Of a DNA stretch of 64,000 bases, positions 15,841 through 61,416 are shown one piece after another (position 1 is the first letter of the stretch; each line of letters starts with the position of its first letter). A program made the translations under genes and the position numbers. The stretch covers positions 1,116,001 through 1,180,000 of the forward strand of contig NZ_CP038498.1 in the NCBI RefSeq assembly GCF_012427845.1, given 5' to 3'. The notes under the pieces were generated by a model. It made no database searches, had not been told where the DNA came from, and saw only the letters and a program-made list of their open reading frames with translations. The DNA is from Pectobacterium punjabense. GTDB taxonomy: Bacteria > Pseudomonadota > Gammaproteobacteria > Enterobacterales > Enterobacteriaceae.

Positions 15841-16475
15841 AACAGATCATGTTGCAACAGATCGTGTTAAGGGAAGCAGCGTTGAAGCCTGCTGGGAGAA
15901 GGTGTGAACAGCGCGGTTTCACACTGCCGGAAGTCCTATTAGCGCTGAGCTTAGGGAGTCTGATTATGCTATCGGCAGCACAGTTGTACCCGCTGCTGCG
16001 TAGCCAAAGTCAGGATAGCGCACAGCGTTTTCGGCTGGAGCAGTTGTTCAGTCAGGTGGCGATGGGAATTGAGAAAGACATCCGTCGGGCAGGTTTTTGT
16101 GCGGGTTCGTGCCAAGGAAAAGCGATAAGCATTGGGAATTATCCAGGGGAGGCGGAAAATAGCTGTCTGAATGTCTCTTACGATCTGAACCGGAATGGGG
16201 CTTGGGATGGCGGGGAACAACAGGATGCGGAATCTTTTGGCTATCGCCTGCGTAGTCGGTCATTGGAGATTCAGAGTGGTGCGCATAACTGTCAGGGAGA
16301 CAGGTGGGAGAAGCTGTTTGATCCGCAGGAGGTGGCGCTGACGGTGTTCCAGCTACGGCGTCTGGCTGCACAAAACGGAGTGGCGTTGTATGAACTGCAA
16401 CTGGCCGGTTATTGGATCAAGCGTCCTGCTGTTCGACAACATATTACCCGCCTGATACTGAGGCGTAACCAATGA
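15834..16475 (+). CDS. ppdB: Prepilin peptidase-dependent pilin-like protein PpdB
   Basis: A minor pseudopilin of about 213 residues with cleavage site RG|FTLPEVLLAL (Gly28, Glu33). The ATG at 15834 overlaps the last codons of ppdA. The N terminus contains a 15-bp near-perfect tandem duplication (15834-15863) encoding MLKQI-MLQQI, so the second ATG (15849) is an alternative start; either way the pilin leader is retained. The rest has the large C-terminal domain with several cysteines expected for the PilW/PpdB group. The stop overlaps the ygdB start (ATGA). Confidence 0.88.
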   Translation: MLKQIMLQQIVLREAALKPAGRRCEQRGFTLPEVLLALSLGSLIMLSAAQLYPLLRSQSQDSAQRFRLEQLFSQVAMGIEKDIRRAGFCAGSCQGKAISIGNYPGEAENSCLNVSYDLNRNGAWDGGEQQDAESFGYRLRSRSLEIQSGAHNCQGDRWEKLFDPQEVALTVFQLRRLAAQNGVALYELQLAGYWIKRPAVRQHITRLILRRNQ

Positions 16476-35046: not shown

Positions 35047-35123
<77 letters not shown>

Positions 35124-35170
35124 TCCGTCATAACTAATCTTCACTGCTTTGATGGACGACCCACATCAAT

Positions 35171-35247
<77 letters not shown>

Positions 35248-35295
35248 TCCGTACTGACTTATCTTCACTATTTTTGATGGACGACTCACATCAAT

Positions 35296-35372
<77 letters not shown>

Positions 35373-50991: not shown

Positions 50992-51068
50992 TACTGTTTG
51001 CCCGTCACCTGCCAAGCCGAGCCAGATTTAAATAAGGCTATCGTGGCGTTAAGGTGTGAAACGTAAGC

Positions 51069-51266
51069 AAAAAAAGCACCGCAATTTGCGGTGCTACACA
51101 AAAAATCACTTTGGACAGACAGGGTAAATGTACAGGAAGTGAATAGGGTAGACTCGCTACCACATCTGCAAAAGGCAGACAAACAAATAGCAAACACAAC
51201 ATCACAACCACAAGCCAAAAGCACCTCAGGTCACCCATCCGCACTTTTCGTTCCGGCTCAGGAAGT
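51069..51266 (-). ncRNA. gcvB: GcvB small regulatory RNA
   Basis: About 198 nt on the minus strand, starting ACTTCCTGAGCCGGAACGAA like E. coli GcvB. The G/U-rich R1 segment (GTGGTTGTGATGTTGTG, plus-strand about 51190-51215) that base-pairs with amino acid and peptide transporter mRNAs is present, as is the CACTTCCTGTACATTTACCC block (R3) and a terminator (GCACCGC / GCGGTGC plus a T-run). Hfq-dependent. It is divergent from gcvA and next to ygdI, as in E. coli. GcvA activates it when glycine is high. The central part differs in sequence from E. coli. Confidence 0.95.
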
Positions 51267-57631: not shown

Positions 57632-57705
57632 GCTGTTACCTTGATGTGATAAGTAAGCGTGATGGCGAATAGTGTAACCTGACTAAAAGAGTGATGAGAA
57701 AAATT

Positions 57706-58254
57706 ATGGATCATGAAGTTGTTTCGGCGCTAGCGGCGTTTACCCAGCGTTATGTTGACTGTTGGCAGCAGGAGAAGGGGCATCTGCCTGCCAGTGAAGC
57801 ACTTTACGGTGTCCCTTCCCCGTGTATTGTCGAAAATCATGAAGATACGGTTTACTGGTCGCCGCAGCCTTTTGTTCCTTCAGCCGCATTGGATGGGGTG
57901 GAGCGTGCGCTGGAAATCAGTCTGCATCCAGATGTTCACGCTTTCTACACCGCGCAGTATGCCGGGGATATGGCGGCGCAGTTTGATTCACTATCTTGCC
58001 AACTACTGCAAGTGTGGAGTGAAGAGGATTTCACCCGTATGCAGGAGAACCTGATTGGTCATTTGTTAACGCAGAAGCGCCTTAAACTCACGCCGACGCT
58101 GTTTTTGGCAACGACGGATTCTGAGATGACAATGGTGTCGTTGTGTAATGTTTCAGGGGAGATCGTTCTGGAAGCGTTCGGCACGAAAAAGCGTCAAATC
58201 TTAGCCCCGACGCTGTCGGCCTTCCTTTCAAGCCTTAACCCGTTAGCAGTCTAA
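57706..58254 (+). CDS. syd: SecY-interacting protein Syd
   Basis: A 182-residue cytosolic protein that binds SecY and can disassemble faulty translocons in E. coli. The family block [12 protein letters not shown], the region [17 protein letters not shown] and [15 protein letters not shown] are clearly visible. I chose the ATG at 57706, matching the E. coli N terminus, over an upstream ATG at 57691. Downstream is the rsmB control region. Confidence 0.93.
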
Positions 58255-58281
58255 TGGTTAATCGAATTTCACTTTCTGCTT

Positions 58282-58322
58282 TGTAAGAGATCTCTTACAT
58301 TTGCTGTAAGAAATGTCTTATC
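58282..58322 (+). promoter_or_regulatory. Two UvrY/ExpA (GacA-type) response-regulator boxes upstream of rsmB
   Basis: A perfect TGTAAG-N6-CTTACA palindrome at 58282-58299 is followed 5 bp later by a half-conserved TGTAAG-N6-CTTATC at 58305-58322. This is the known binding pattern of GacA-family regulators at CsrB/RsmB-type genes. They sit about 75-100 bp upstream of the predicted start. Confidence 0.88.
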
Positions 58323-58328
58323 TTTAAT

Positions 58329-58347
58329 GTTGGAAATACGTTTCATT
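58329..58347 (+). promoter_or_regulatory. Possible KdgR-like box
   Basis: GTTGGAAATACGTTTCATT matches the KdgR pattern AATGAAACnnTGTTTCATT at 12 of 17 defined positions, perfect in the right half. KdgR has been reported to repress rsmB in Pectobacterium; this site itself is only a candidate. Confidence 0.35.
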
Positions 58348-58375
58348 TTTATTTTTCCATTATTAATTAGCGAAT

Positions 58376-58381
58376 TATAAT
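58376..58381 (+). promoter_or_regulatory. -10 element of rsmB
   Basis: Consensus TATAAT with no good -35 (TTTTCC at 17 bp), as expected for an activator-dependent promoter. Predicts a start near 58388. Confidence 0.65.
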
Positions 58382-58387
58382 AAAAAA

Positions 58388-58875
58388 TAGCAGTATTGCT
58401 TAGGGTGTGATGAGAAAGATTGTCACTTACCCCTTGCCGAAAGCTGACAATTAATACATCTTATTACTTAAGTTAGTAACCGGTTACAGTGTGTGTAACA
58501 GTGACTATCGGTAACAAAATACTGTTACCGCAATCAGATTGTTTTAGGAAGAGACATTGTTTTAGGAAGAAACAGTCGTTTCAGGAAGAAGCACAGTTTT
58601 CAGGAAGAAACACGATTTCAGGATGAAATCAGGGACACCTCCAGGAAGGAGACCGAGAGCCGATTAGGAATGTCGGTGGGGCAGGAGCCTAAAGGGATTG
58701 AATCACGGAAGATACAGGATGGAAACGTCAGGACGAAAGTGGGACGCCAGCAAGGATTGTGGGTCAGGAAGACCAAAAAGGAAAAGTTTTCACGGATGAG
58801 CAGGGATGCAAATGTGTAGCGGGATAGCTATAAAACGAACGGGGGGTACTGAGCAATCAGTACCCCCAATTTTTT
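58388..58875 (+). ncRNA. rsmB: RsmB (CsrB-type) RsmA-sequestering regulatory RNA
   Basis: A long RNA that binds many copies of RsmA/CsrA and so relieves repression of exoenzymes, quorum sensing and motility genes. From about 58546 it carries 22 GGA motifs, many as AGGAAG or AGGATG. The 5' third has none but forms hairpins (for example CGGTAACA / TGTTACCG at 58509-58530). It ends in the strong terminator GGGGGTACTGA / TCAGTACCCCC (58842-58867) plus a T-run. The length of about 488 nt agrees with the roughly 480-nt primary RNA reported for Pectobacterium; the 5' end is predicted. Located after syd like csrB in E. coli. Confidence 0.93.
58842..58875 (+). terminator. Rho-independent terminator of rsmB
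   Basis: Perfect 11-bp stem with GCAA tetraloop, followed by AATTTTTTG. Confidence 0.95.
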
Positions 58876-59070
58876 GCCTGTAAGACAAGTCTTTCCCTCC
58901 CTGAACGCATTGATGCTGCACCCATGCTACGAAGAAAAAATGTTTAAAACGTCATGCCTGAAGGACTGCTGAAGGTTGAGCCTGCGTCCAGAATTTGCAA
59001 TTAGTCTGAAAATTTACTAATTTAGCTTTTTAGTAATTTATCGGACTATTTAGCAAAGGAAAACGCAGTG

Positions 59071-60747
59071 ATGAAATTCAATGTAAAAATGCTGTCAGTC
59101 ACGCTTGGCTTGTTTACCAGCCATGCTTTCGCACACACCGTCTATGAAAATGCACGGATTTATACCGTTAACGATCAACAGCCAACGGCCTCAGTTCTGG
59201 TCGTGGATCAGGGAAAAATTATCTATGTCGGTGGACGTGATGGTGCGAAGCCATTTAAAGCGACCGCTGCTGAGTCGGTTGATTTAGAAGGAAAAACCGT
59301 ACTGCCTGGTTTTATTGAGAGTCACGCTCATCCAGCAACGGTAGCTGTGATGGAGGCGGGCGATTTTGTGTATGTTGACGGTGCGGCAACGCTGACGCAG
59401 ATTCTTAGCCAATTAAAAGATTATTTAACCGCACATCCGAACGCGAACTATTTGTTGGCACAAGGATTTAACGTTGCTTCACTTGGTTTACCACAAGGAG
59501 TGCTGCCGACGACTGCTGATTTAGATACGGTGTCCACGCGTGTTCCGATCGTAGTTTATGACAGCGGCATGCATGCGGGGTGGGCGAATAGTGCAGCGTT
59601 GAAGGTTGCCCACGTCGATGCGACTACGCCTGACCCTATTCCTGGGAAACACTATTTTGAGCGCGATAACAAAGGTAATCCTACAGGCTTCATGCATGAA
59701 AGCGCGATGCACCTTGTTGTCGACGCGCAGCAATTTAACGTGGTAGAAAACGTTGCTGAGAAACTTCAACCAATTCTAAAGACCTACCACTCGCTGGGGT
59801 TTACGGCGATTACTGACGTTGGCGATACGTTTAGCACGACAGTGGCTGCCATTGCCCGCTTAAACGAGCAGGGGAAACTGAAGGTCTATTATCAGCGCGG
59901 CTATTTTTATGATGCTGCCAAATCGACCGAACAAAATATTGCCAGTCTTAACGTCCTGCGTGAAAAATATCACCAGGGCAATTTGTCGATGAATCTGTAT
60001 AAGCTATTTATGGATGGCACGATTGAAATGGATTCGGGGGCGATGTACCTGCCTTATCCCAACGGCAAGGTCGTCGAACCCTTTTTAAGCCAGAAACAGA
60101 TTAACGACAATGTCGCCGCGGCGTTGAAAGCGGGTTTCTCAGTGCATGTACACGCGATAGGCGATAAAGCGCAGCAGTCGATTTTAGACGCCTTTGAGGC
60201 TAACAAAAAAATTAACCCGCATTTGGCTCGCGTGATTGCCCATAACCAAGTGTTTGAGCCACAGGGTGTGCAGAAATTTGCCGCAATGAAGGACAACCTA
60301 TTCCTGCAAACGACACCAAACTGGACGGTGGTCAATGAAAAAGATGAGACCAAATCCAAAATTGGTAATGACGCTTATCACCACCAATATCTGCTCGGGC
60401 AAGCTGCGCGTGAGGGTGTCGCGGTAACCTTCGGTTCAGATTATCCCGCCAATACCTTTGATGCAGTGAACCCGTTCAGCCAGATGTATCATGCCATCAA
60501 ACGCGGCCAGCCAAATGCTGGCTATCTCCCCCCAACTGAGGCGGCAATGACATTCGCTCAAAGCTTGCAGGCTTATACGATTAATGGGGCGAAGCAGCTT
60601 GGTATCAGTGAGATAACTGGGAGTCTTGAGAAAGGGAAAAACGCGGACTTTATTATTGTGGATACCGATATTGGCGGTGCAGACTTGGAAAAATTGAAAA
60701 ATACCAAGGTGTTGGCAACCTATTTCAAAGGGGAAAAAGTGTACTAA
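59071..60747 (+). CDS. aepA: AepA-like exported amidohydrolase (exoenzyme regulatory protein)
   Basis: A 558-residue protein with a Sec signal (MKFNVKMLSVTLGLFTSHAF, cleavage after AFA) and an amidohydrolase_3 (YtcJ-like) metal-dependent hydrolase domain: FIESHAHP with H85 and H87, HVHAIGDKA, FGSDYPANTFDAVNPF and the C-terminal GSLEKGKNADFIIVD. It corresponds to AepA, known in Pectobacterium as an activator of extracellular enzyme production and encoded next to aepH (= rsmB). Product likely periplasmic. Its enzymatic substrate is unknown. The start is ATG 59071 or GTG 59068, both served by AAAGGAAA. rsmB terminates before it, so it has its own promoter in 58876-59060. Confidence 0.85.
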   Translation: MKFNVKMLSVTLGLFTSHAFAHTVYENARIYTVNDQQPTASVLVVDQGKIIYVGGRDGAKPFKATAAESVDLEGKTVLPGFIESHAHPATVAVMEAGDFVYVDGAATLTQILSQLKDYLTAHPNANYLLAQGFNVASLGLPQGVLPTTADLDTVSTRVPIVVYDSGMHAGWANSAALKVAHVDATTPDPIPGKHYFERDNKGNPTGFMHESAMHLVVDAQQFNVVENVAEKLQPILKTYHSLGFTAITDVGDTFSTTVAAIARLNEQGKLKVYYQRGYFYDAAKSTEQNIASLNVLREKYHQGNLSMNLYKLFMDGTIEMDSGAMYLPYPNGKVVEPFLSQKQINDNVAAALKAGFSVHVHAIGDKAQQSILDAFEANKKINPHLARVIAHNQVFEPQGVQKFAAMKDNLFLQTTPNWTVVNEKDETKSKIGNDAYHHQYLLGQAAREGVAVTFGSDYPANTFDAVNPFSQMYHAIKRGQPNAGYLPPTEAAMTFAQSLQAYTINGAKQLGISEITGSLEKGKNADFIIVDTDIGGADLEKLKNTKVLATYFKGEKVY

Positions 60748-60969
60748 GGCACACGGTATCCAATATACTTTGGCCGCGTGGAAAGGCAGCAACCGCATGA
60801 ATTCCCCGGAAGCTGCCATTTCCCCAATAGCACGAAGCCTATGGATGGGCCGGATAATCATATCAACGCACCTGTAACCCGAAATGTGTCGGGTAGGTCG
60901 TGTATGCGGTGATTGGATTTCATTGCCTTGGCGATTGTGAACGATTAGCCCATTTGTAGGATATTTCAC
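60748..60969. other. Intergenic aepA-marR with decayed repeat
   Basis: No gene. The stretch at about 60779-60815 (GGAAAGGCAGCAACCGCATG, then AATTCCCCGGAAGCT) resembles the reverse complement of the right part of the 56551-56750 repeat and is probably a degenerate copy. The remainder shows no clear signal. Confidence 0.45.
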
Positions 60970-61416
60970 ATGCATCGATTAGATGAATTAGGCAGACAGC
61001 TCAATCACCTCGATAACTTGTTTCAACAATGGATGAAGAAGCTGGGTTTTAATCAGAATGCCTTTGCGGTTCTGCATTCTTTGGCTGTATCTCCAGATGG
61101 AAAATGTACGCAAAAATATATTTGTGAGCGATGGAGCTTGCCTAAGCAAACGGTGTTTAGCATCTGCAAGTTATTCAAAGAACAAGGTCTGATTGACATC
61201 GCTGAAAGTGAACACGACAAGCGAGAAAAGGTCCTGACGTTAACTGAACTGGGGAAAAAACGCACTCAGCCGATTTTGACGCAATCGCAGATATTAAGTG
61301 AACGTGCTTTCGGGGCTTTGGGCCAGGAACAAACGCAGCAGCTTTTCGCCAATTTAGAGGGATTCTGCAGGGTGTTTGAACAAGAAATGGATAATGTTTC
61401 AGGGGCTAGTGAGTAG
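60970..61416 (+). CDS. MarR-family transcriptional regulator
   Basis: A 148-residue winged-helix protein. The recognition region CERWSLPKQTVFSICKLFKE and the wing IAESEHDKREKVLTLTELGK are typical of MarR proteins. It follows aepA on the same strand, 222 bp downstream, and is absent at this site in E. coli. It might control aepA or sense the same compound (inference only). Which MarR subgroup is not clear. Confidence 0.85.
   Translation: MHRLDELGRQLNHLDNLFQQWMKKLGFNQNAFAVLHSLAVSPDGKCTQKYICERWSLPKQTVFSICKLFKEQGLIDIAESEHDKREKVLTLTELGKKRTQPILTQSQILSERAFGALGQEQTQQLFANLEGFCRVFEQEMDNVSGASE

What the first reader, a model, noticed from the sequence alone, without database searches (positions are those of the whole stretch)
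58282..58875. Complete RsmB locus with 22 GGA motifs and an unusually structured GGA-free 5' third
The sequence shows an activator-box region, a consensus -10, a 5' stretch of roughly 155 nt with no GGA motif but several hairpins, then 22 GGA motifs and a very strong terminator. Published knowledge says the Pectobacterium RNA is processed to a 3' part of about 260 nt; the boundary here would fall near 58617, just after the first five evenly spaced AGGAA/AGGAT units. This suggests the GGA-rich region has two modules that might sequester RsmA differently (inference).
Basis: partly seen in the sequence, partly recalled or inferred. Interest (0 to 1): 0.7.

Follow-up and report, generated by a model that had tools for sequence, protein, structure and literature searches.

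The report
Pectobacterium RsmB RNA, start site corrected

Summary
The locus is a real rsmB gene: Rfam CsrB/RsmB 254 bits, syd upstream, GacA/UvrY box at 58282, 22 GGA, strong terminator. The "unusually structured GGA-free 5' third" is mostly a misplaced start. In 70 of 99 CsrB-family rows with a GacA box, the core promoter reads TTG[TC]NN-17-[GC]AT[TC][CT]T, 152-158 nt from the box, aligning with E. coli csrB, whose start is annotated. All 51 soft-rot rows (26 of them selected for likeness; 25 unselected Pectobacterium genomes) have TTGC[CT]G-17-CATCTT at 151-152. Here that is 58434-58462, giving a start near 58470 and an RNA of about 406 nt, not 488. The GGA-free leader is then 76 nt; 35% of 76-nt stretches of the window lack GGA. 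The two-module idea gains another kind of support: the evenly spaced units form an 18-19-nt tandem array, about 4 to 11 units long in Pectobacterium, while the 3' module is 233-234 nt in 24 of 24 distinct sequences. Its function is untested.

The parts
57691..58254 (+). syd (SecY-interacting protein), upstream neighbour as in E. coli
   Evidence: Pfam PF07348 245.5 bits; E. coli MG1655 order queF-syd-csrB-yqcC
58282..58299 (+). GacA/UvrY 18-bp palindrome TGTAAGAGATCTCTTACA
   Evidence: fits the consensus TGTAAGNNNNNNCTTACA quoted in PMC4682653 (passages); 0 or 1 mismatch in 25 of 25 Pectobacterium genomes
58305..58322 (+). second, weaker box-like copy TGTAAGAAATGTCTTATC
   Evidence: recognisable, with changes, in the relatives printed
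58365..58377 (+). possible IHF site: 2 mismatches to WATCAANNNNTTR here; perfect in Samsonia at this offset and in E. coli 3 nt further
   Evidence: For the window itself the scan printed another 2-mismatch place (box+26), so the window alone does not single this one out
58376..58381 (+).
   Evidence: 8 of 24 distinct Pectobacterium, 0 of 10 other distinct sequences at this offset
58434..58439 (+). -35 element TTGCCG of the conserved csrB/rsmB core promoter
   Evidence: TTGC[CT]G at box+151/152 in 51 of 51 soft-rot rows
58449..58466 (+). block AATTAATACATCTTATTA holding the -10
   Evidence: no mismatch in 25 of 25 Pectobacterium genomes, at 167 nt (24) or 166 nt (1) from the box
58457..58462 (+). 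-10 element CATCTT, 17 nt from the -35
   Evidence: aligns with GATTCT of E. coli csrB
58470..58875 (+). predicted RsmB RNA, about 406 nt, 22 GGA
   Evidence: start inferred by alignment with E. coli csrB; fold z-score -4.54, 0 of 100 shuffles as good
58470..58545 (+). GGA-free leader with two predicted hairpins (58474-58507 and 58510-58529)
   Evidence: pairs kept in 99.1% of 432 cells, no change on both sides of any pair
58539..58630 (+). tandem array of five 18-19-nt AGGA units
58631..58841 (+). 3' GGA module of nearly fixed length
   Evidence: GACACC (58634) to end of terminator stem (58867) is 234 nt in 23 and 233 nt in 1 of 24 distinct Pectobacterium sequences
58842..58875 (+). intrinsic terminator

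Best explanation
This is rsmB, the CsrB-type RsmA-sequestering RNA of a Pectobacterium species. GacA-P binds the box at 58282, an IHF-type bend brings it to a weak core promoter (TTGCCG-17-CATCTT, 58434-58462), and transcription starts at about 58469-58471 and ends at the terminator near 58875. The RNA has a short leader without GGA, a tandem array of five small AGGA units whose number differs among species, and a 3' GGA module of nearly constant length. It binds RsmA and so frees RsmA's mRNA targets. Shown here by computation: identity, parts, conservation, array variation. Inferred from homologues: the start site, the IHF role, GacA and RsmA binding.
For: RF00018 254.2 bits; one RF00018 match in the own genome; 25 of 25 Pectobacterium genomes with a match over the cut-off; one CsrA/RsmA gene found in the genome. 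Core promoter: 70 of 99 family rows with a box of at most 3 mismatches carry TTG[TC]NN, a spacer, [GC]AT[TC][CT]T within box+120 to +200; all 70 have spacer 17 although 16-18 was allowed, and the -35 is at box+152 to +158; letter-shuffled control 0.25%. E. coli MG1655 csrB: box start to annotated start 191 nt, GATTCT ending 7 nt before it; the same rule gives 58469 here. E. coli box centre -183/-182 (PMC4682653, passages), against -180/-179 here for a start at 58470. Box-to-block spacing 167 in 24 and 166 in 1 of 25 Pectobacterium genomes, while little between the AT-rich stretch and the -35 is conserved as far as Dickeya.
Against: No transcript was mapped here. In the matrix scan of 57700-58900 a site inside syd (58102, -8.3) scores marginally above 58434 (-8.7). 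29 of the 99 family rows lack the strict promoter pattern; 4 of those 29 are two loci listed twice. 26 of the 51 soft-rot rows were found through likeness to this leader or block. The -10 is weak. For Erwinia amylovora a GacA box 165 bases from the start is reported (PMC5109040, passage), shorter than the 188-191 used here. The leader pairs show no two-sided covariation and shuffles do as well. The promoter stretch 58388-58469 itself folds better than shuffles as RNA (z -2.23).
Confidence: 0.85

Rival explanations
1. The start is where the first reader put it: TATAAT at 58376 is the -10, the RNA begins near 58388 and has a long structured GGA-free 5' third.
For: TTTCCA-16-TATAAT passes a sigma-70 scan, 10 of 12; 14 of 24 distinct Pectobacterium sequences read TAYAAT there. 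RNA of 58388-58537 folds better than shuffles, z -2.35, and 58388-58469 alone z -2.23.
Against: At that offset TATAAT is in 8 of 24 distinct Pectobacterium and 0 of 10 other distinct sequences. It would put the GacA box centre at -98, far from -183 in E. coli. The scan found 2 promoter-like sites where shuffles give 1.9. The stretch 58388-58433 diverges to Dickeya while box-to-block length stays 166-167 nt in all 51 rows, as a DNA spacer would.
Confidence: 0.08
2. Two promoters: the family-wide one at 58434-58462 and a Pectobacterium-only upstream one at 58376 that adds about 80 nt under some conditions.
For: TAYAAT in 14 of 24 distinct Pectobacterium sequences; many bacterial sRNAs have more than one start (general knowledge).
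Against: TATAAT overlaps the IHF-like stretch; letter shuffles of this AT-rich stretch give TATAAT 22% of the time; no experiment seen.
Confidence: 0.1
3. The variable array is neutral slippage in a tolerant part of the RNA, with no effect on RsmA titration.
For: Tandem 18-19-nt units gain and lose copies easily; this part is recalled to be removed by processing. The minimum-energy fold of the array here does not make five separate hairpins: units 1 and 3 pair around unit 2.
Against: The unit hairpin is kept: the inner four pairs form in 92-97% of 71 distinct units and 0 of 2000 shuffles score as high over all six pairs, though the two outer pairs form in only 69% and 37%. Units were picked by AGGA, so its presence is no evidence, and related units are not independent.
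Confidence: 0.45

Closest known systems
RsmB RNA of Pectobacterium (Erwinia) carotovorum Ecc71 and relatives
   Same: Same gene by family, genus and role: GGA-rich RNA activated by GacA that sequesters RsmA (PMC5442451, PMC6418279, passages)
   Different: Five array units here. Ecc71 RsmB is recalled as 479 nt; no held paper found gives that number. Four of 34 distinct sequences come out at 479 nt by the script, which gives 405 for the 406 nt of this window, so 479-480
CsrB of Escherichia coli (RF00018)
   Same: Same Rfam family, same syd neighbour, same box-promoter geometry
   Different: -10 GATTCT against CATCTT; a different series of GGA stretches before GGACACCTCC, read by eye and not tested for repeats
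csrB/rsmB of Erwinia amylovora (PMC5109040, passages)
   Same: GacA box, reported IHF site, many GGA
   Different: Reported as 455 nt with 31 GGA, box 165 bases from the start

Membership tests
CsrB/RsmB (RF00018) | Covariance-model match above gathering score 71 | tested here: met
   254.2 bits, full model 1-356
CsrB/RsmB (RF00018) | Many GGA motifs, a good part in hairpin loops | tested here: met
   22 GGA; hairpins of the family model and of array units; the single-sequence fold pairs units 1 and 3 differently
CsrB/RsmB (RF00018) | Intrinsic terminator at the 3' end | tested here: met
   11-pair stem and T-run
CsrB/RsmB (RF00018) | GacA/UvrY box upstream at csrB-like spacing | tested here: met
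   box 58282; -35 at box+152, family range 152-158
CsrB/RsmB (RF00018) | CsrA/RsmA encoded in the same genome | tested here: met
   PF02599 92.4 bits at G000:C1:3562863-3563018
CsrB/RsmB (RF00018) | Binds and titrates RsmA | not testable with these tools
   needs a binding assay
CsrB/RsmB (RF00018) | Mapped transcription start | not testable with these tools
   predicted 58469-58471 by homology only

The most novel reading that the evidence does not exclude
The 5' part of Pectobacterium RsmB is an expandable RsmA sponge: a tandem hairpin array that grew from two units or fewer, as in Samsonia, Brenneria and Dickeya, to between about 4 and 11, with repeated gains and a steep loss (or an assembly collapse) in P. 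versatile KC01, while the 3' module stays fixed, so that species tune early or unstable RsmA titration by repeat number.
Probability: 0.3. Interest if true: 0.55.

Novelty: already known. Interest (0 to 1): 0.32.

Why it matters
RsmB controls the plant-cell-wall-degrading enzymes of soft-rot bacteria. A correct start site matters for reporter fusions, mutants and probes, and for any claim about a structured 5' third. The species-specific repeat number gives natural variants of one RNA that differ mainly in one feature, a ready series for asking how the number of binding sites sets RsmA titration.

Tried and rejected
Regulon test of the palindrome GTAACCGGTTAC (58476-58487, just after the predicted start): in the own genome one exact copy, at rsmB, and 6 forward matches with up to one mismatch against 18 for the reversed control. 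In ten relatives 13 exact copies against 7 for the reversed control; 9 of the 10 genomes have one at rsmB, G121 has its copy on another contig. No sign of a regulon; it may be part of an RNA hairpin or a single operator.

Leader covariation: pairs kept, but only one-sided changes, no better than shuffles; counted as weak.

Unit identity within genomes 0.76 against 0.78 between genomes: no concerted evolution seen.

Papers: in the listings and the passages I opened I saw neither the Ecc71 RNA length nor a mapped Pectobacterium rsmB start; supplements were not open to me. No title or abstract start listed describes array variation (listing only). Liu 1998 and Chatterjee 2002 are not held.

Rows dropped: L026-L029 (below the cut-off; two lie on the opposite strand of the terminator), L100 and L101 (weak BLAST hits), L105 (pattern hit in an unrelated organism). 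L119 is cut at its locus end; L024, with the same leader, was used. Of the 124 family genomes with a match not every one was fetched; searches took 80 stretches chosen from its list, and one search used these plus L030-L063, 114 rows, in which L062/L166 and L063/L169 are the same loci twice.

Full report
What is there. The window carries a CsrB/RsmB RNA at 58522-58877 by the Rfam model (254.2 bits), preceded by syd, as in E. coli, where syd, csrB and yqcC are neighbours. The own genome has one such RNA and one CsrA/RsmA gene. 25 of 25 Pectobacterium genomes have one match over the cut-off. The GacA/UvrY palindrome is at 58282-58299 with a weaker copy at 58305-58322; 22 GGA follow, the densest 330-nt stretch of the plus strand; a strong terminator closes it.

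The start site. I compared the upstream DNA of relatives. One search lists 114 CsrB-family rows, taken from matches (not every genome with a match; two loci occur twice). 99 rows have a GacA box with at most 3 mismatches. In 70 of these 99 the pattern TTG[TC]NN, 16-18 nt, [GC]AT[TC][CT]T occurs within box+120 to +200, in all 70 with a 17-nt gap and with the -35 at box+152 to +158; letter-shuffled sequence gives it in 0.25% of trials. In E. coli MG1655 this is the csrB promoter: TTGTAA-17-GATTCT, with the annotated csrB start 7 nt after GATTCT and 191 nt from the box start. In all 51 soft-rot rows the same place reads TTGC[CT]G-17-CATCTT (26 TTGCCG and 25 TTGCTG). Those 51 rows hold 34 distinct sequences; 18 rows were found by the block itself and 8 by likeness to the leader, so the unselected part is the 25 Pectobacterium genomes. 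There the 18-nt block around the -10 has no mismatch in 25 of 25, at 167 nt (24) or 166 nt (1) from the box.

In the window the promoter is therefore 58434-58462 and the start near 58469-58471. The box centre would be at -180/-179, against -183/-182 reported for E. coli (PMC4682653, passages). Within 57700-58900 it is second, just behind a site inside syd, so the matrix supports but does not decide. Against it, a report on E. amylovora puts the GacA box 165 bases from the start (PMC5109040, passage); how that start was set I did not see.

The TATAAT itself is at that offset in 8 of 24 distinct Pectobacterium sequences, with TACAAT in 6 more, and in none of the 10 others; Samsonia has one 3 nt further. 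It overlaps an AT-rich stretch where Samsonia has a perfect IHF consensus at box+83 and E. coli at box+86; the window's copy at box+83 has two mismatches, no better than another place at box+26. In E. coli IHF is needed for optimal UvrY binding at csrB (PMC4682653, passages), and rsmB goes down in an ihfA mutant of Dickeya dadantii (PMC7826290, passages). A possible lux box upstream of rsmB has been reported in P. wasabiae (PMC5442451, passage); its place is in a supplement I could not open.

The 5' part. With a start at 58470 the RNA is about 406 nt and folds better than shuffles (z -4.54). Its GGA-free leader is 76 nt, with two predicted hairpins. The pairs are kept in 99.1% of 432 cells over 24 distinct sequences (23 or so Pectobacterium and Samsonia; the alignment holds 25 rows), but no pair changes on both sides and shuffles do as well, so the structure is plausible, not proven. 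GGA-free stretches of this length are common (35% of the window). Dickeya and some Brenneria have GGA in the leader.

The two modules. The evenly spaced AGGA units are an 18-19-nt tandem repeat. From the block to GACACC the distance varies mostly in whole units: about 4 to 11 (3.9 to 10.8, one sequence at 8.5) in the 24 distinct Pectobacterium sequences, 2.0 to 2.6 in Samsonia and three Brenneria-type sequences. Counted as AGGA units it is 4 to 10 in those 24 and 0 to 2 in the 10 others. From GACACC to the end of the terminator stem the length is 234 nt in 23 and 233 nt in 1 of the 24, and 234-241 in the 10 others. GGA totals run from 21 to 28 in Pectobacterium. On a tree of the syd side the window and its nearest relatives have 5 units (L021 has 4), the carotovorum-brasiliense group 9-10, the aroidearum group 7-11, and P. 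versatile KC01 has 4 although it sits among 9-10-unit relatives; branching there is weakly supported and KC01 is a draft assembly. Neighbouring units are near-copies in P. carotovorum and CFBP8739, as recent duplication would leave, though over all genomes units are no more alike within than between genomes (0.76 and 0.78). The unit hairpin is kept: the four inner pairs form in 92-97% of 71 distinct units and 0 of 2000 shuffles score as high, but the two outer pairs form in 69% and 37%, and the best fold of the array here pairs units 1 and 3 around unit 2.

Published sizes. A 259-nt form would start at 58617 here, inside the last array unit, so most of the array would be lost on processing. 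With the start proposed here four distinct sequences, P. brasiliense among them, give 479 nt in the script, or 480 counted like the window's 406. Ecc71 is now called P. versatile (PMC10384996, passages), whose KC01 genome predicts 387 nt, so the agreement needs Ecc71 to have nine units. This is a lead, not evidence.

Verdict. A known RNA, correctly recognised; its start was very probably misplaced; the modular view is right in outline and gains an unexpected feature, the variable array. The listing showed no paper on that variation, which is a narrow search.

Noticed in passing
59068-61416: An amidohydrolase gene and a MarR-type regulator sit between rsmB and yqcC; in E. coli yqcC follows csrB directly. 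Among the named relatives an amidohydrolase hit lies beside rsmB in P. carotovorum (L106, cut at the locus end) and a MarR hit in P. polonicum (L111); in 14 other named loci yqcC was found with neither.
   Followed up: partly
58476-58487: Perfect palindrome GTAACCGGTTAC just after the predicted start, one exact copy in the genome; exact in 23 of 24 distinct Pectobacterium leaders, Samsonia and some Brenneria, and beside the -10 in another genus (L179, L200).
   Followed up: partly
L118 (P. versatile KC01): About four array units although relatives on the tree have nine or ten; loss or assembly collapse.
   Followed up: no
L023:1368-1453: A 9-nt insertion in the leader beside a similar AGTAACAA sequence.
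   Followed up: no
51068-51266: GcvB RNA on the minus strand, 136 bits.
   Followed up: no
35050-35372: Three tRNA matches in a row on the minus strand, two of them shown and near-identical.
   Followed up: no
15999-16328: Second densest GGA stretch of the plus strand, 16 in 330 nt; not examined.
   Followed up: no
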